The notes beneath the pieces were generated by a model. The model saw only the letters and a program-made list of their open reading frames with translations, made no database searches and was not told the DNA's origin. Source: Hujiaoplasma nucleasis (GTDB lineage Bacteria; Bacillota_I; Bacilli_A; Izemoplasmatales; Hujiaoplasmataceae). Taken from it: DNA of 64,000 bases. Position numbers and translations under genes: made by a program. Shown piece by piece: positions 25,399 to 41,560 of this stretch (its first letter is position 1; each line of letters opens with the position of its first letter). Where the stretch lies: positions 124,001-188,000 of the forward strand of contig NZ_CP051151.1 in NCBI RefSeq assembly GCF_013745115.1. Direction: 5' to 3'.

Positions 25399-26283
25399 TT
25401 GAAATTAGTTGTTAGGATAAAAAATCAAGAAGAAATTAGACATTTGACTGAAATTGGTGCAGATGTTTTTTTGCTTGATACTGATAATTTCACAACTAAA
25501 GCTATTTTTGCACTTGGCATAAATGAAATGAAGTCAATAGTTCAGTACATAAAATCTCTCAATAAGGAAGTTTATGTTTTAATCAATAAAATGATTCATG
25601 AACCTGATATTTTAAGACTTAAGTCTTATTTGTCTTATTTGAAGGAACTTGAAGTGGATGCTATTGTTATCAATGATTTTTCAGTGTATGTCATAGCCAA
25701 AGAAATTGAATTGGATCATTTGATTATATATCAACCAGGTACTATGAATACCAATAGTTTTGATGTGACTTATTTAAAAAATAGAATTAAGGGTATGACT
25801 CTCTCAAAGGAGATTACCCTTGATGAAATTCAGGTAATGATAGAATCAAGTAAGGACATTGAATTTTCTATTATTGGACATGGTTATATTGATATGTTCT
25901 ATTCCAAAAGAAAATTAATTACTCATTATTTAACTCACAAGGATTTATCGGGTCCTTTAGTCAAAGGTAATCAAGGTTTTGTTCTTGAAGAAAAAACTAG
26001 AGAAAATATGTTCTATCCTATATATGAAGATGAAATAGGAACACATATTTTTAGGGATAAAAAGCTGGAATCTTTTAAAGAAATTCAAATGATTAAAGAT
26101 AAAATAAGCGATTTTTTTATTGAAAGAATTTTTATGGATGATCAGGAATACTATCATGCTGTTAAAGCTTATTTAAATCAAGAATCTGTTGAGAGTTTCT
26201 TAAAGCAATATGGGGCTTCATACAATAAAGGTTTTTATTACACCCCTACTGAAAAAAGAAAGGGTGAAATTCATGAAAACTGA
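25399..26283 (+). CDS. trhP1: U32-family protein TrhP1 (tRNA wobble uridine hydroxylation, YrrN-like)
   Basis: About 294 residues, a U32 'peptidase' family protein of the shorter YrrN type. In Bacillus the YrrN/YrrO pair is needed to hydroxylate uridine 34 in tRNA, with prephenate as an oxygen-related source; proteolysis is not its main role. The N-terminal strand pattern LVVRIKNQEEIRHLTEIGADVFL and the later block IIGHGYIDMFYSKRKLI fit the fold; the Cys cluster of the longer paralog is not seen. I choose TTG 25399, five bases after AGGTGA; GTG 25390 overlaps that site. It overlaps trhP2 by 11 bases. Confidence 0.88.
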   Translation: MKLVVRIKNQEEIRHLTEIGADVFLLDTDNFTTKAIFALGINEMKSIVQYIKSLNKEVYVLINKMIHEPDILRLKSYLSYLKELEVDAIVINDFSVYVIAKEIELDHLIIYQPGTMNTNSFDVTYLKNRIKGMTLSKEITLDEIQVMIESSKDIEFSIIGHGYIDMFYSKRKLITHYLTHKDLSGPLVKGNQGFVLEEKTRENMFYPIYEDEIGTHIFRDKKLESFKEIQMIKDKISDFFIERIFMDDQEYYHAVKAYLNQESVESFLKQYGASYNKGFYYTPTEKRKGEIHEN

Positions 26284-27460
26284 GTTGTTGGCACCGGCAG
26301 GAGATTTACAAAAAGCAAAAATAGCCTTATTATATGGCGCTGATGCTGTATATATAGGAGGCAAACAATTTTCATTAAGAGCTAGAGCTTCTAATTTTGA
26401 TGTATCTATGATAAAAGAATTGGTCGATTATGCTCATCAAATAGAAAAAAAAGTTTATGTTACCATGAATATGGTATTTCACGATGAAGATGTAGAGGGG
26501 TTAGATCAGTATTTAAAAGCACTAGATCAAATAGGAGTAGATGCTATCATTTGTTCAAATATGATTGTTATTGAAAAGGCAAAAGAGTTAACTAATTTAG
26601 AAATTCATTTATCAACTCAGTTTTCATTAACAAACTCATCTTTAGCAAACTATTTTTTCCAAGAAGGTGTACAAAGGGTTGTTTTATCAAGAGAAGCATC
26701 TTTAGAAGAAATAAAGGAAATTCAAAATAAATCTAAAGCTGAGTTGGAAGTCTTTATTCATGGTGGTATGTGTGTATCATATTCTGGAAGATGTACATTA
26801 TCAAATTATACAGTACTAAGAGATGCCAATCGCGGAGGATGTGCTCATACTTGTAGGTGGTTGTATAACTTGTACGATCATGGCAGATTGATATCTGAGG
26901 ATTTTGATTACCAAATGTCTTCAAAAGATTTAGAAGCAACAAATTATATTAAAGACTTATTAGATATAGGTGTAGCATCCTTAAAGGTTGAAGGTAGGAT
27001 GAAATCAATTCACTATATAGCCACAGTTATAAATGCTTATCGCATGTTGATAGATGACTACCATAAGTCTTGTTTAAGACCTATAGAACAATATCAATTA
27101 GAAATTCAAAAAGCAGAAAATAGACTGACTTCGTACGGCTTTTTTGAAGGAGAAACAAGCACAGAACAGCAATTATATAATGCTAGAAGTGAAATACCTA
27201 CTAAAGAGTTTGTAGCTTTAGTTAAAGAATATAATGAGGATAAGAAAGAACTGATTATTCAACAAAGGAATTATTTTGAACCAGGTGATAGTCTTGAAAT
27301 ATTAATGCCTGATAAAACAATTATTCAATTAAAAGTAAGAGAAATTTTTGATGAAGATAATCTAAAATTGGATGCAGCTAGACATCCATTACAAACCATC
27401 AAATTAAGATGTCTTATTCGTGTTAAAAAGAATAGTATGGTCAGAAAAATTTTAGTTTAG
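26273..27460 (+). CDS. trhP2: U32-family protein TrhP2 (tRNA wobble uridine hydroxylation, YrrO-like)
   Basis: About 395 residues. It starts at ATG 26273 after AAAGGGTGAA, giving the family N-terminus ELLAPAGDLQKAKIALLYGADAVYIGG. The U32 signature EVFIHGGMCVSYSGRC and RGGCAHTCRW supply four Cys that probably hold an Fe-S cluster. A small C-terminal beta domain (about 320-395) matches the PF16325-type tail. With the preceding gene and trmR it forms the methoxyuridine-34 pathway for wobble decoding. Confidence 0.93.
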   Translation: MKTELLAPAGDLQKAKIALLYGADAVYIGGKQFSLRARASNFDVSMIKELVDYAHQIEKKVYVTMNMVFHDEDVEGLDQYLKALDQIGVDAIICSNMIVIEKAKELTNLEIHLSTQFSLTNSSLANYFFQEGVQRVVLSREASLEEIKEIQNKSKAELEVFIHGGMCVSYSGRCTLSNYTVLRDANRGGCAHTCRWLYNLYDHGRLISEDFDYQMSSKDLEATNYIKDLLDIGVASLKVEGRMKSIHYIATVINAYRMLIDDYHKSCLRPIEQYQLEIQKAENRLTSYGFFEGETSTEQQLYNARSEIPTKEFVALVKEYNEDKKELIIQQRNYFEPGDSLEILMPDKTIIQLKVREIFDEDNLKLDAARHPLQTIKLRCLIRVKKNSMVRKILV

Positions 27461-27485
27461 TTAACAAATATATTTGTGATATAAT
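27457..27485 (+). promoter_or_regulatory. Extended -10 promoter of greA
   Basis: TGATATAAT (TATAAT at 27480-27485, TG two bases upstream) with a poor -35 region (TTAGTT, 27457-27462, 17-bp spacer). Confidence 0.7.
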
Positions 27486-27508
27486 AAATAAGTAAAGGGG
27501 ATTATATA

Positions 27509-27979
27509 ATGGAAAATAAATTTAAATTAACCCAAGCTGGGTTTGAACAACACCAAAAAGAATTAGAAGAACTTAAGGGTCCTATTAGAGAAAAAAACTT
27601 GCAAGATTTACAAGAAGCAAGAGCTCAAGGTGACTTATCTGAGAATGCTGATTACGATGCAGCTAGAGATGAGCAAGCAAGAATAGAAGCTCGTATCAAA
27701 GAAATTGAGAATATTTTAAAAAATGCTGTAATTATTAACGAAAACAGCCGATCAAAATCTATTTCTGTGGGGAAACAAATCACAGTTAAATTTATAAAAC
27801 AAAACGTTGAAAAAAAATTAAAATTAGTTGGACCTGTTGAAGCTAACCCATTAAGCAATCAAATCTCTGATGAATCACCATTGGGTAAAGCACTTATTGG
27901 ACAAAAGAAAGGTCAAATTATTCATTATAAAGCTGAAACCGGTAAAGAAATAACTGTTGAAATATTAGATGTTAAATAG
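27509..27979 (+). CDS. greA: Transcription elongation factor GreA
   Basis: About 156 residues. An N-terminal antiparallel coiled coil (about 1-75) carries the acidic tip DLSENADYDAARDEQ that reaches into the RNA polymerase secondary channel and stimulates cleavage of backtracked RNA. The C-terminal FKBP-like domain (about 80-156) includes SPLGKALIGQKKGQ. AAAGGGGA precedes ATG 27509. It has its own extended -10 promoter although it lies in the conserved trhP-greA-mtnN order; udk, normally before greA, is absent. Confidence 0.97.
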   Translation: MENKFKLTQAGFEQHQKELEELKGPIREKNLQDLQEARAQGDLSENADYDAARDEQARIEARIKEIENILKNAVIINENSRSKSISVGKQITVKFIKQNVEKKLKLVGPVEANPLSNQISDESPLGKALIGQKKGQIIHYKAETGKEITVEILDVK

Positions 27980-27996
27980 AGTGTGAGGAATACATT

Positions 27997-28704
27997 GTGA
28001 TAGGAATCATAGGCGCATTAGATATTGAATTAAACTTTCTATTTGAAAATATGGTTATCGCAAGGACAGAATTGATTGCCGATAAGACTTTTTATTTAGG
28101 ACATATAAAAAACCAAGAAGTTGTTGTCTCTAAATCTGATATTGGTAAAGTGAATGCAAGCATCACTGCGACCATTATGGCAAGTTATTTCAAAGTAAAA
28201 TTGATTATTAACACAGGTATAGCTGGTGGTTTGCATCCTGCTCAAGTAGGAGATATTATATTGGCTAATGGCTTGTCGTATTTCGATGCTTCAACCACAG
28301 CGATTGATGATGCTCCTCATGGCCAATTAGGGGATGATCCTTTAATAGTCAAGACTGATAAAGCTTATTTGCATAAAGCCATTAATGTTTTTAATAAACT
28401 AGCATATGATTATAAGATTGGACATATTGTTTCTGGAGATAAATTTGTAACCAAGATAAGAACATTAGATAAGATTAGTAAGAATGTTACTAATATTTTA
28501 GCCTGCGAAATGGAAGGTATGGCCATAGCCATAACTGCTTATAAATTTAATATTCCTTTTATTTCAATTAGAGGTATTTCTGATGTGGTTGAAGATAAAG
28601 GACAAACCCTATCTTATAAAAAAATAGCTCATGAAATTGCTAAAAAAAGTTCTCAATTTGTTCTATCTTTTTTAGGAGTGTTAAATGAATCAAATAAAGC
28701 TTGA
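27997..28704 (+). CDS. mtnN: 5'-methylthioadenosine/S-adenosylhomocysteine nucleosidase
   Basis: Nucleosidase of about 235 residues that splits methylthioadenosine, S-adenosylhomocysteine and 5'-deoxyadenosine, so it removes by-products of the SAM-using enzymes in this window. The N-terminus IGIIGALDIEL, TGIAGGL, the substrate segment CEMEGMAIA and the catalytic region ISDVVED are present. The start is GTG 27997, about 9 bases after GTGAGGAA. The stop lies inside the next gene and inside a terminator-like hairpin (28700-28734). Confidence 0.95.
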   Translation: MIGIIGALDIELNFLFENMVIARTELIADKTFYLGHIKNQEVVVSKSDIGKVNASITATIMASYFKVKLIINTGIAGGLHPAQVGDIILANGLSYFDASTTAIDDAPHGQLGDDPLIVKTDKAYLHKAINVFNKLAYDYKIGHIVSGDKFVTKIRTLDKISKNVTNILACEMEGMAIAITAYKFNIPFISIRGISDVVEDKGQTLSYKKIAHEIAKKSSQFVLSFLGVLNESNKA

Positions 28705-29362
28705 TAATTATGTTTTTAATTATCAAGTTTTTTTCAATAAGATAAAACATGTATATTTAAGAATAGAAAAAGACTATATTAAAGTCACTTGTCATCCTAG
28801 CTTTAGTCAAGATCAAATAGAGGCTTTCTTATATAAGCATAAACGATGGATTATCAATCGATTAAGCATAGAAAAAAAAGATATCTATAATTTGAAGTCT
28901 TTCTCTTTATGGGGTCAAGAGTATAAAGTAAGAGTAAATAAAAATATTTCTCGCTCTATTTATCTTTTTGATAGCCATATCAATATTAAATCTGATACTA
29001 TTGATGGAAAAGTAATTGAACATTTCTATAGAAATGAAACTTTAAAAGAAATAAAACAGATTATTGAAGATAATAAGGAATTATTGAAGCAGTACTTCAA
29101 TATAGACCAGCTTACTTTTAAAGCTCAATTAATGAAATCAAGGCTTGGAAGTTGCATTACGCAAAAGAAAATCATCAAACTAAATTCCATACTGGCAAGA
29201 TTAGATAAGAAATATCTAAAACTAGTCTTATTTCATGAGTTAGTTCATTTAAGTGTCCAAAATCATTCTAAAAATTTTCATGATTTACTTGAGGTTTTAT
29301 ATAAGAATCATCGTCTTGCCACTCGTCAATTAAATCATGAAATTAAAAAGTATAAAATGTAA
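28685..29362 (+). CDS. YgjP-like (DUF45/WLM) metallopeptidase
   Basis: Putative zinc metallopeptidase of about 225 residues. The zinc motif HELVHLSVQNHSKNFH gives HExxH and a third His further on (about residues 183-198). The N-terminal region KHVYLRIEKDYIKVTCHP and HKRWIINRL matches the YgjP/DUF45 family. AGGAGTG precedes ATG 28685, within mtnN. Codons 5-18 form a perfect 11-bp hairpin with a following T-run, so expression may depend on anti-termination or ribosome coupling. Confidence 0.88.
   Translation: MNQIKLDNYVFNYQVFFNKIKHVYLRIEKDYIKVTCHPSFSQDQIEAFLYKHKRWIINRLSIEKKDIYNLKSFSLWGQEYKVRVNKNISRSIYLFDSHINIKSDTIDGKVIEHFYRNETLKEIKQIIEDNKELLKQYFNIDQLTFKAQLMKSRLGSCITQKKIIKLNSILARLDKKYLKLVLFHELVHLSVQNHSKNFHDLLEVLYKNHRLATRQLNHEIKKYKM
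28700..28734 (+). terminator. Terminator-like hairpin spanning the mtnN stop and the first codons of the next gene
   Basis: Stem CTTGATAATTA (28700-28710) pairs perfectly with TAATTATCAAG (28717-28727) over a 6-nt loop and is followed by seven T (28728-28734). It has the form of an intrinsic terminator for mtnN, but it lies wholly inside the reading frame of the YgjP-like gene. Confidence 0.7.
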
Positions 29363-29381
29363 GTGTTCACTCATGAAAAAA

Positions 29382-29410
29382 TAGACATTTACCTTTAAAT
29401 ATTATATAAT
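29382..29410 (+). promoter_or_regulatory. Promoter of the yqeG operon
   Basis: TAGACA (29382-29387) and TATAAT (29405-29410) spaced by 17 bp, 33 bp before the yqeG start codon. Confidence 0.75.
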
Positions 29411-29442
29411 AATATATGCAATGTATAATCCTGGAGGCAACT

Positions 29443-30003
29443 ATGATCGAAATTTTTCTGAAAAAGAAATTCTTTTACCCAAATGAATACCAGAAAACCG
29501 TTTTTGATATAGATTTTAATAAGTTAAAATCCAAGGGTATACAACATATATTAATTGATTTAGATAATACGCTTATCCCCTATGATGAGCATTTACCGAA
29601 CACAAGAATAGAAGAATTAGTAAATCAAGTTAAGTCTTTAGGATTGACAATGACAATTATTTCTAATAATAAAGAGAAGCGAGTTCAAGCATTTTCTAAA
29701 GCCATTCAATTGGATTATGTAAATAGCTCAAAAAAACCATTAAAATATGGTTTCAAAAAAGCTTTAAAAAAACTTTCTTATCCTTCAGTAAGCACAGTTT
29801 GTTTGATTGGAGATCAATTCATGACAGATGTGTTTGGGGGTAATCGAATGGGCTTTTACACGATTGTTGTCGATGCAATAAAAAGAAAAACTGAAAAATG
29901 GTATACCAAGCTTAATAGAAAATTAGAGAATAAAGTTCTTTTAAGGTTAAAAAAGACTGATCCTGATTTTTATGATTTGATGAATTTAGCGGAGAAGAGG
30001 TAG
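29443..30003 (+). CDS. yqeG: YqeG-family HAD phosphatase
   Basis: HAD-superfamily hydrolase of about 186 residues, PGP/YqeG type. The nucleophile motif IDLDNTL and the later CLIGDQFMTDVFGG (motif IV) are clear. Physiological substrate unknown; the gene is always linked to the ribosome-assembly GTPase yqeH. I start at ATG 29443, preceded by TGGAGG at good spacing; ATG 29416 has no such site. First gene of a long operon running to yqeM. Confidence 0.93.
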   Translation: MIEIFLKKKFFYPNEYQKTVFDIDFNKLKSKGIQHILIDLDNTLIPYDEHLPNTRIEELVNQVKSLGLTMTIISNNKEKRVQAFSKAIQLDYVNSSKKPLKYGFKKALKKLSYPSVSTVCLIGDQFMTDVFGGNRMGFYTIVVDAIKRKTEKWYTKLNRKLENKVLLRLKKTDPDFYDLMNLAEKR

Positions 30004-30006
30004 AGT

Positions 30007-31128
30007 ATGAGTCAAGATGCATATTGTAATGGCTGTGGTTCAAAAATACAAAGCACAGACAAAACCAAACCTGGATTTATTAGTGAAGATTTATTAAAAG
30101 AGAAATCATCAGATGAACTAATATGTCAAAGATGTTTTAGAATTAAGAATTATTCTGAAACATTTCCTTATGAGGTATCAAACCAAGATTTTTTGCAAGT
30201 AATAGATAAAATTAGAAACGAAGATGCATTAATTGTTAAAATTGTTGATATTTTTGATTTTTCAGGATCTTTCGTACCAGCAATTAAGACTTTAACTGAA
30301 AAAAAAGATTTTATATTAGTTGGAAACAAAGTAGACCTTTTACCAAAAAATGTAAAGCATAAAAAGATATTGAGTTGGCTAAAAATAATGTTGAGAAATC
30401 AAGGTTTTGATGTTTTAGATAGTGTACTTGTATCTGCTAAATATGGTGATAATTTTGACGAGTTAATGAGATTGATTTATAAGTATAAGGGTAATAGAAA
30501 TGTTTATATTGTGGGTTCAAGTAATGTGGGTAAATCTAAAATTATTAATCAAATATTAAAAAGATATTTAGGTGCAGCATCTGACATAGTAACAGAATCA
30601 TTATCCCCTCAAACAACTTTAGGTTTGATTGGTTTTAATCTTCTTGATGGTTCAATCATTTATGATACACCTGGAGTGGTTAATAAACATCAATATATGC
30701 ATTATTTATCGAGACAGTCTTACAAGGCAACATATCCACAAAAAGAAGTAAAACCACTTGTTTTTCAGTTAAATGAAGAACAAACTTTATTCTTTGGTGG
30801 TTTGGCAAGATTAGACATTATTTCTGGTGAAACCTGTGATATTATAAATGTCGTAACTTATTTTTCAAATAGGTTAAATATTCATCGAACTAAGACTGAT
30901 AGAGCAAACAAATTATATAAAGATAAATTATATTCTTTATTGTCTCCACCTGTTTCATCAGAAGAAGAATTACCTAGATGGGTCTTTCATGAGTTTAGAA
31001 TTAGAGACAATCAAAAATATGATATCGTCTTTTCTGGTTTAGGCTTTGTGACATTAAGAGCACCTTTTCATGTTAAAGCTTATGCACCCTTTGTCGTGGG
31101 CGTATATACTAGGTTGGCCATTATATAA
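30007..31128 (+). CDS. yqeH: Ribosome biogenesis GTPase YqeH
   Basis: Circularly permuted GTPase of about 373 residues needed for 30S subunit assembly. An N-terminal zinc finger (CNGCG ... CQRCF) comes first; G-motifs then appear in permuted order: VGNKVDLL (G4), SAKYG (G5), GSSNVGKSK (G1), and YDTPGV (G3). Directly abuts yqeK. In Bacillus aroE, yqeI and nadD stand between yqeH and yqeK; here they are missing from that place. Confidence 0.96.
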   Translation: MSQDAYCNGCGSKIQSTDKTKPGFISEDLLKEKSSDELICQRCFRIKNYSETFPYEVSNQDFLQVIDKIRNEDALIVKIVDIFDFSGSFVPAIKTLTEKKDFILVGNKVDLLPKNVKHKKILSWLKIMLRNQGFDVLDSVLVSAKYGDNFDELMRLIYKYKGNRNVYIVGSSNVGKSKIINQILKRYLGAASDIVTESLSPQTTLGLIGFNLLDGSIIYDTPGVVNKHQYMHYLSRQSYKATYPQKEVKPLVFQLNEEQTLFFGGLARLDIISGETCDIINVVTYFSNRLNIHRTKTDRANKLYKDKLYSLLSPPVSSEEELPRWVFHEFRIRDNQKYDIVFSGLGFVTLRAPFHVKAYAPFVVGVYTRLAII

Positions 31129-31704
31129 ATGAAAAATTTATTAGACCATATAAAAGACTATCTAATTCATGAATTTGAAAGTGATTCCTATAGGCTAAAG
31201 CATATTTTTTCAGTTGCTGAAATGGCTGTTAAATTGGCTAATCATTATTATATAGATGTTTATAAAGTAGAAATAGCTGCTTTATTACATGATGCTACAA
31301 AAAATGATTCAATTGAGACTATTTGGTCAATGGCACAAGAGGAATTTTCATTAGAAGAATTAGAGAAGATTCCTAAAGGCTGTTTGCATGCATATTCGGC
31401 TGTTGTTTTAGCTAAAAATAATTTTAATATCCAAGATAAAGAAATTTTAGATGCAATAAAATACCATTGTCATGGTAGAATGGGTATGTCAAAGGTAGAG
31501 CAAGTAATTTATTTAAGTGATTACCTTGAAGAGACAAGAGATTTTGTCACAGATGATTTTAGGCAACTTGCTTTTCAAAATCTTGATCTTGCAACGGCTA
31601 GAGTTGTAAAAGAAACCATTGATTATTTGCATAAGAAAAAAGCATATATATCTGAAGAAACATACAAATTGTATGACTATTATTATATTGGAGGAAATGA
31701 ATGA
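31129..31704 (+). CDS. yqeK: HD-domain Ap4A hydrolase YqeK
   Basis: HD-superfamily protein of about 191 residues. Metal-binding motifs are visible: H in RLKHIFSVAEMA, HD in ALLHDATKN, His in CLHAYSA, and Asp in YLSDYLE. YqeK hydrolyses diadenosine tetraphosphate symmetrically to two ADP. It begins on the base after the yqeH stop without an evident ribosome-binding site, so coupled translation is likely. Four-base overlap with rsfS. Confidence 0.94.
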   Translation: MKNLLDHIKDYLIHEFESDSYRLKHIFSVAEMAVKLANHYYIDVYKVEIAALLHDATKNDSIETIWSMAQEEFSLEELEKIPKGCLHAYSAVVLAKNNFNIQDKEILDAIKYHCHGRMGMSKVEQVIYLSDYLEETRDFVTDDFRQLAFQNLDLATARVVKETIDYLHKKKAYISEETYKLYDYYYIGGNE

Positions 31705-41520: not shown

Positions 41521-41560
41521 AGGACTAGTTCAAAATAAATGAACTAGTCCTCTTTTTTTT
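41521..41560. terminator. Bidirectional terminator between pyk and the PAP2 gene
   Basis: A 12-bp stem (AGGACTAGTTCA, 41521-41532; partner 41540-41551) with a 7-nt loop and T8 tail. The stop codon of the minus-strand PAP2 gene (TAG) lies inside the stem. Confidence 0.92.

What the first reader, a model, noticed from the sequence alone, without database searches (positions are those of the whole stretch)
28700..28734. Terminator for mtnN embedded in the first codons of the YgjP-like protease gene
An 11-bp perfect stem with seven T straddles the mtnN stop codon and codons 5-18 of the following gene. A ribosome starting at 28685 would cover the left arm and prevent hairpin formation, so downstream transcription would depend on translation of its own leader codons. 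This is an attenuation design without a separate leader peptide.
Basis: partly seen in the sequence, partly recalled or inferred. Interest (0 to 1): 0.55.

Follow-up and report, generated by a model that had tools for sequence, protein, structure and literature searches.

The report
Transcription terminator written in gene's codons
The first codons of a bacterial metalloprotease-like gene appear to double as a stop signal for RNA polymerase that ends the message of the genes in front of it, and evolution has kept that signal almost letter for letter in three related genera while the protein around it changed freely.

Summary
The hairpin is real: an 11-bp perfect stem (28700-28710/28717-28727) and seven T (28728-28734) in codons 6-17 of ygjP. 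Alone it would be weak evidence; comparison makes it notable. The same element occurs once, always 15 nt into ygjP, in 15 of 90 genomes of the order, which are 15 of the 16 members of one three-genus clade. Proteins there are 36-54% identical to this one, yet 6 of 6 amino-acid-invariant codons in the element keep one codon, against 6 of 174 elsewhere in ygjP, mtnN and greA: selection acts on nucleotides. Strength and distance to the mtnN stop match ordinary terminators of this genome. Best reading: an intrinsic terminator ending the greA-mtnN message, ygjP being transcribed by read-through. Gating by ygjP's own starting ribosome is not supported: in E. coli a terminator 30 bp past a start codon lost only about 10% efficiency that way (PMC4824070), terminators here often overlap stop codons, a proxy for uncoupled transcription, and no other conserved fold was found. 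A gate read by the ribosome finishing mtnN stays open. Termination itself is inferred; there are no transcript data.

The parts
28700..28710 (+). left arm of the hairpin, CTTGATAATTA (ygjP codons 6-9)
   Evidence: sequence; fold; first 9 nt invariant in 15 genomes except one A-to-G, in 2 of them, that allows a G-U pair
28717..28727 (+). right arm, TAATTATCAAG (ygjP codons 11-15)
   Evidence: last 9 nt ATTATCAAG invariant in 15 genomes
28728..28734 (+). U-tract, seven T here; at least six in all 15 genomes (codons 15-17)
   Evidence: pattern with six T in 15 genomes
28696..28699 (+). AAAG that can extend the stem by pairing with the first four T of the tract (28728-28731); not strictly conserved
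28685..29362 (+). ygjP, 225 aa, YgjP-like metallopeptidase family
   Evidence: PF01863 E 9.8e-29; ORF
28674..28678 (+). AGGAG, ribosome-binding site of ygjP
   Evidence: sequence; a GAGG, GGAG or AGGA within 16 nt of the start in 14 of 15 genomes, not in L004
27997..28704 (+). mtnN-type nucleosidase (phosphorylase superfamily), overlaps ygjP by 20 nt
28702..28704 (+). mtnN stop codon TGA, inside the left arm (this genome only, of 15)
27509..27979 (+). greA, in front of mtnN in a conserved greA-mtnN-ygjP run
   Evidence: PF03449, PF01272; mtnN beside ygjP in 32 of 33 loci and greA in 30 of 33
29382..29410 (+). promoter-like site in front of the next gene (HAD family, ORF 29416-30003)
   Evidence: 11 of 12 consensus matches, where such matches are no more common than in shuffles; similar sites after ygjP in g1 and g6 relatives by eye

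Best explanation
The element is an intrinsic (hairpin plus U-tract) transcription terminator that ends the greA-mtnN message just after the mtnN stop codon. Because ygjP starts at or inside the end of mtnN, the terminator has to be written in ygjP's own codons 6-17. Any transcript that carries the ygjP start must pass it, so ygjP (and in genus g10 the gene directly behind it) is transcribed only by the polymerases that read through. The terminator therefore sets a low, roughly fixed ratio of ygjP to greA-mtnN mRNA. Shown: the structure, its unique place, its conservation, and selection on the nucleotides rather than only on the amino acids. Inferred: that it acts as RNA, that it terminates, and that its efficiency is constant rather than regulated.
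For: Pattern CTTGRTAAT-N6..12-ATTATCAAGTTTTTT: one copy in 15 of 90 genomes of the order, none in 75, reversed-pattern control 0; all 15 in codons 6-17 of ygjP. The clade g1+g6+g10 has SH-aLRT 100 on greA+mtnN, and 15 of its 16 genomes carry it. Codon test: 6 of 6 amino-acid-invariant columns use one codon in all 15 genomes, v. 1 of 25 in the rest of ygjP, 2 of 71 in mtnN, 3 of 78 in greA; Leu CTT 15 of 15 although CTT is 11-28% of Leu codons. Synonymous recodings of the same peptides give a 9-bp hairpin with U-tract in only 4-125 of 2000 per genome. Changes inside the 9-pair core keep pairing: A-U to G-U in 2 of 14 distinct rows; next to it A-U and U-A exchange in 5 of 14 rows. In the genome scan its -11.9 kcal/mol is near the median -11.2 of 156 non-coding signals; 67 of 156 are at least as strong. 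The stem starts -5 to +14 nt from the end of the mtnN stop in 15 genomes; 77 of 128 gene-end signals of this genome fall in -6..+14. No Rho over the family cut-off in 0 of 34 family genomes, with 8 of 14 control genomes over it, so intrinsic signals should carry termination (inference).
Against: No transcript data. Stem-loop is A-T rich: 5 of 28 bases G or C by my count, v. a median of 0.33 for the 156 non-coding signals. L008 folds to only -7.9 kcal/mol. A terminated transcript keeps the ygjP start without a stop codon, a cost (tmRNA is present). One clade member, G028 (L015), does without the hairpin. Little covariation: 8 of 15 pairs never vary; the number of pairs with two-sided change (1; 468 of 500 shuffles as high) and of further pair types (6; 457 of 500) do not exceed shuffles; the five U-A rows are all genus g1, so perhaps one event; the outer pairs are unpaired in up to 6 of 14 rows. 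In g6 a further terminator-like hairpin follows ygjP (by eye), so the embedded one is not the only stop there.
Confidence: 0.62

Rival explanations
1. Ribosome-gated attenuator read by the ribosome that finishes mtnN: when mtnN is translated close behind RNA polymerase, the terminating ribosome covers the lower left arm and polymerase reads into ygjP; when translation lags, the hairpin forms and ygjP is shut off.
For: The mtnN stop ends within -5..+14 nt of the stem in 15 of 15. In E. coli a stop codon 5 bp before a terminator cut its efficiency from about 90% to under 10%, and uncoupling translation abolished that repression (PMC4824070, passages). Rho-less family, so Rho polarity would not do this job.
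Against: 37 of 128 gene-end signals of this genome begin before the end of the stop codon and the median distance is 6 nt: a proxy for polymerases that outrun ribosomes (PMC7858274, passages), reported for many low-GC Gram-positive bacteria (PMC13323073, passages). The hairpin's place is then simply that of an ordinary terminator.
Confidence: 0.15
2. One reading: the ribosome initiating at the ygjP start covers the left arm and keeps the hairpin open, so ygjP transcription depends on translation of its own first codons.
For: Start codon and its 15-nt distance to the stem are the same in 15 of 15 genomes, a ribosome-binding site is present in 14 of 15.
Against: Stem starts at +16, beyond an initiating ribosome (footprint recalled). 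In E. coli silencing the start codon 30 bp before a terminator changed efficiency by only about 10% (PMC4824070, passages). Uncoupled transcription likely in this genome.
Confidence: 0.06
3. DNA palindrome: an operator for a DNA-binding protein inside ygjP.
For: CTTGATAAT and ATTATCAAG are perfect inverted repeats; core sequence nearly invariant; unique in the genome.
Against: Six or more T follow on the sense side in 15 of 15. The one core change, in 2 genomes, allows a G-U pair, which keeps an RNA stem but breaks DNA symmetry. A site after the start codon of the third gene of a run would be an unusual operator place.
Confidence: 0.07
4. RNA element of another kind: 3'-end protection or processing site of the greA-mtnN mRNA, or a structure tuning ygjP translation, without termination.
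For: Stable local hairpin, the only consensus fold predicted in -110..+119.
Against: Would not need the conserved T-tract (GTT TTT fixed in 15 of 15).
Confidence: 0.08
5. By-product of protein constraint: the peptide LDN..YQVF is conserved and happens to fold.
For: Amino acids of the arms are largely conserved in the clade.
Against: Codon test (6 of 6 v. 6 of 174); recoding test; relatives outside the clade have other residues here.
Confidence: 0.02

Closest known systems
Internal intrinsic terminators that set gene ratios inside operons, e.g. ABC importers of cellulolytic Clostridia (PMC9045158, passages)
   Same: Hairpin terminator between an upstream gene made in excess and a downstream gene reached by read-through
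   Different: Those were sought in intergenic regions of more than 50 bp and have longer GC-rich stems and poorer U-tracts; here the signal is in codons 6-17 of the downstream gene, A-T rich with a full U-tract, and nearly frozen in sequence
Terminators a few nucleotides after stop codons in bacteria with runaway transcription, B. subtilis type (PMC7858274, passages; PMC13323073, abstract and passages)
   [quoted passage not shown] low-GC genome
   Different: Here another gene's start codon lies upstream of the stem
Leader-peptide attenuators (trp, pyrBI; general features recalled, pyrBI also in PMC4824070 passages)
   Same: Terminator within an ORF; possible link to ribosome position
   Different: No separate leader ORF, no alternative consensus fold found, no pause or signal identified
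ORF-internal 3' ends of E. coli (PMC7815308, passages) and Borrelia (PMC10319736, passages)
   Same: 3' ends formed inside coding sequence
   Different: Mapped experimentally in one species each and only partly ascribed to intrinsic termination (20% of the listed E. coli ends by score); the passages I saw do not speak of codon-level conservation

Membership tests
Intrinsic (Rho-independent) terminator | Stable hairpin directly followed by a U-tract | tested here: met
   15-pair stem, -14.8 kcal/mol, seven T; six T in 15 of 15 genomes with the element
Intrinsic (Rho-independent) terminator | GC-rich stem | tested here: not met
   Two G-C pairs in 11; stem-loop 5 of 28 G or C by my count, below the median 0.33 of 156 non-coding signals. 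In a 30% GC genome the feature discriminates little, so I keep the terminator reading as how it works rather than as proven membership
Intrinsic (Rho-independent) terminator | RNA polymerase releases transcript at the U-tract | not testable with these tools
   No transcript data
Internal operon terminator setting stoichiometry | Lies so that the downstream gene can only be reached by read-through | tested here: met
   ygjP start lies upstream of the stem, so any ygjP mRNA must pass it
Internal operon terminator setting stoichiometry | Lower downstream than upstream transcript | not testable with these tools
   No RNA-seq
Ribosome-mediated attenuator | Mutually exclusive antiterminator structure or ribosome occlusion of an arm | tested here: inconclusive
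   No second consensus fold in -110..+119 of 15 genomes; occlusion by the mtnN ribosome is geometrically possible
Ribosome-mediated attenuator | Transcription-translation coupling in the host | tested here: inconclusive
   Terminator placement points to uncoupled transcription; indirect
Known Rfam cis-regulatory RNA | Match to a covariance model | tested here: not met
   0 matches up to E 1 in 26000-31500
DNA operator palindrome | Symmetry kept in both half-sites | tested here: inconclusive
   Kept in 13 of 15 genomes; broken by A-to-G in L005 and L010, where RNA can still pair G-U

The most novel reading that the evidence does not exclude
In a lineage without Rho, a hairpin written in the first codons of ygjP acts as a Rho-free polarity checkpoint: it lets RNA polymerase continue into ygjP only while a ribosome is closely behind it at the end of mtnN. 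Protein sequence has been bent to encode this checkpoint, and selection keeps it at the RNA level across three genera.
Probability: 0.15. Interest if true: 0.75.

Novelty: new variant of a known kind. Interest (0 to 1): 0.5.

Why it matters
It looks like a clear natural case in which codons are held fixed by a signal in the nucleotides rather than by the protein, probably at the cost of amino-acid changes (relatives outside the clade have other residues there; gain in the clade is inferred). It shows how compact genomes without Rho could place a terminator where genes overlap. Each terminated message would carry a start codon with no stop, a defined natural source of non-stop mRNA. Measuring read-through here would test whether ribosomes matter for termination in lineages thought to have runaway transcription.

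Tried and rejected
YgjP as UTP pyrophosphatase, which would suggest UTP sensing through the U-tract: the label is recalled only; searches for YgjP with UTP, UTP pyrophosphatase and ygjP alone gave listings in which I saw nothing usable, so the idea was dropped.

A Fur-like operator reading of the palindrome was considered from memory and set aside because the spacing of the two halves differs.

Mobile or repeated element: rejected, one copy per genome.

Programmed slippage on the T-run: not pursued; the reading frame is open and aligned on both sides in the 15 genomes.

A first estimate of mtnN stop positions was wrong because tblastn ends ran through stop codons; it was recomputed, and searches are used.

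Another hairpin with a T-run early in a coding sequence of this genome (L062 405-431) served as a control. Its same-genus orthologue (L069, 48% identical) folds to -9.4 against -10.7 kcal/mol for the same 60 nt, but in a different structure and without the T-run. One orthologue only; the other loci, among them L070 which also covers the N-terminus, were not examined.

Nearby starts with hairpins (nine besides the window's) were read by eye only; at least one (L056 19193) looks like a wrong start codon.

No protein structure prediction was run.

Full report
Observation. The sequence holds an 11-bp perfect inverted repeat, 28700-28710 with 28717-28727, a 6-nt loop, and seven T at 28728-28734. 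Folded alone, 71 nt around it form a 15-pair hairpin of -14.8 kcal/mol, z -3.54; within 201 nt the same hairpin forms, z -2.22. It lies in codons 6-17 of a 225-aa ORF of the YgjP-like metallopeptidase family (PF01863, E 9.8e-29) that starts at 28685 behind AGGAG. There is no other in-frame start codon before codon 70. The upstream mtnN-type gene (PF01048) ends at TGA 28702-28704, inside the left arm.

Chance within one genome. In the window plus 20 stretches of 20 kb of the same genome (464 kb, 443 ORFs of 60 aa or more chosen by length) a hairpin-plus-T scan gave 211 candidates: 29 in sense coding sequence, 26 antisense to coding sequence, 156 elsewhere. Sense and antisense counts are alike, so coding-sequence hits are mostly background. 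The window hairpin (-11.9 kcal/mol in that scan) is the second strongest of the 29 sense ones, but 6 of the 26 antisense ones are as strong. On this evidence alone the finding would be weak.

Conservation. YgjP was found in 32 of 34 genomes of the family. Reading the start of ygjP in 31 loci, 30 of the family and one of another family, showed the same hairpin in genera g1 (5 of 5), g10 (5 of 5) and g6 (5 of 6). A pattern search over 90 genomes of the order found CTTGRTAAT, a spacer, then ATTATCAAGTTTTTT exactly once in each of those 15 and in none of the other 75; the reversed control was 0. It is unique in the window's genome. On a tree of greA+mtnN (30 of 33 loci) the three genera form one clade with SH-aLRT 100 that holds 15 hairpin genomes and one without, G028; the label needs two changes. 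That tree is a quick one without bootstrap. The ygjP protein tree needs four changes of the label and has several long branches, with two non-clade rows falling among the hairpin genera; I rely on greA+mtnN. The distance from the A of the ygjP start to the first stem base is 15 nt in 15 of 15.

Selection on nucleotides. Among the 15 genomes, whose YgjP proteins (the window's own aside) are 36-54% identical to the window's, amino-acid-invariant columns were compared for codon choice. In the element 6 of 6 columns use a single codon in all 15; elsewhere 1 of 25 in ygjP, 2 of 71 in mtnN, 3 of 78 in greA. From these counts my own arithmetic gives about 2e-8 for six single-codon columns of six, taking columns as independent. 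Leu is CTT in 15 of 15 although CTT makes up 11-28% of Leu codons; Val is GTT in 15 of 15 at 14-67% usage. The one other single-codon column of ygjP is codon 2, which lies in or next to the mtnN overlap. Random synonymous recodings of the same peptides gave a hairpin of at least 9 bp with a U-tract in 4 to 125 of 2000 per genome, so each peptide allows the hairpin but does not force it.

Why the core does not covary. In the reading frame each third codon position of one arm pairs with a second position of the other, and first positions pair with first (read from the sequence). Hence no core pair can change by two silent changes, and nearly every silent change breaks a pair; CAA to CAG is the exception, and is not seen. 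The changes seen in the nine-pair core keep pairing: A-U to G-U in two genomes. The tenth pair is A-U in 8, U-A in 5 and unpaired in 1 of 14 distinct rows; the five U-A rows are genus g1, so this may be one event. Outside these, pairs are unpaired in 1, 6 and 1 rows at the base and 4 and 5 rows at the tip. Eight of 15 pairs never vary, and the numbers of pairs with two-sided change and of further pair types do not exceed shuffles. The covariation score and the share of paired cells exceed all 500 shuffles, but related sequences can do that without structure (all). The evidence for RNA pairing is therefore moderate; the codon evidence is strong.

What it is. Two facts fit a terminator. First, at least six T follow directly on the sense side in all 15 genomes. 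Second, strength and place match the ordinary terminator-like signals of this genome: 67 of 156 non-coding ones are as strong or stronger, and the stem lies -5 to +14 nt from the end of the mtnN stop, where -6..+14 holds 77 of 128 gene-end signals. Its stem-loop is poorer in G and C than most (5 of 28 by my count; median 0.33). No Rho protein reaches the family cut-off in any of 34 family genomes, some of them incomplete, while 8 of 14 control genomes are over it (own genome); the weak hits are probably ATP synthase subunits (inference). No Rfam family matches. RNAalifold over -110 to +119 predicts this hairpin and nothing else, so there is no sign of an antiterminator or aptamer.

How it most likely works. 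Polymerase finishing mtnN meets the hairpin and often stops; the part that reads through makes ygjP mRNA. Since the ygjP start lies before the stem, no promoter downstream could replace that read-through. In g10 ygjP is followed directly by an ORF that I take for ygiQ from recalled sequence features; in g6 terminator-like hairpins follow ygjP (by eye). In the window the scan lists no signal on the + strand between this hairpin and 32717, and by eye none is evident after ygjP in the other g1 genomes. The terminator is thus a ratio setter and, in g1, perhaps the only stop of the greA-mtnN unit. A terminated RNA would carry the ygjP start with about 16 codons and no stop codon; tmRNA is present (156.6 bits).

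Ribosome gating. Li et al. (PMC4824070; abstract and passages) tested both geometries in E. coli. A terminator 30 bp after a start codon kept most of its efficiency, lowered only about 10% by translation of its own ORF; a terminator whose upstream stop codon was moved to 5 bp before it fell from about 90% to under 10%. So gating by ygjP's own initiating ribosome is unlikely even in a coupled cell, while gating by the ribosome finishing mtnN could be strong in one. Whether this lineage is coupled is unknown. [quoted passage not shown] That favours a constant terminator, but it is indirect.

Known or new. Internal terminators that set ratios in operons are known (PMC9045158, passages), as are ORF-internal 3' ends (PMC7815308, PMC10319736, passages). 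In the listings of six searches and the passages I read I did not see a terminator conserved at codon level inside the start of a downstream gene; most papers of subscription journals are not in that library, so this is no proof of absence. I file it as a new variant of a known kind.

Limits.

Noticed in passing
L007, L008, L011, L012, L013, L015 (genus g6), directly after ygjP: Terminator-like hairpins that include or touch the ygjP stop codon, with sequences that differ from genome to genome (weaker T-run in L012), in contrast to the nearly frozen embedded one. Read by eye.
   Followed up: partly
L015 (G028), start of ygjP: The one clade member without the hairpin; its N-terminal residues resemble those of relatives outside the clade. 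Loss or gene replacement not resolved.
   Followed up: partly
G000 and 33 other family genomes: No Rho over the family cut-off in any of 34 genomes.
   Followed up: yes
L062 405-431: Another hairpin with a T-run early in a coding sequence (484-aa ORF); not kept in the one same-genus orthologue examined.
   Followed up: partly
window 41521-41551: Strong hairpin with T-rich tails on both strands, possibly a bidirectional terminator.
   Followed up: no
window 29382-29410 and the same place in g1 and g6 relatives: Promoter-like TAGACA-17-TATAAT in front of the next gene, with similar sequence in relatives by eye.
   Followed up: no
ygjP against greA and mtnN: ygjP evolves faster than its neighbours (median end branch 0.57 over 33 rows v. 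0.17 over 30 rows for greA+mtnN), which makes the nearly frozen element stand out.
   Followed up: partly
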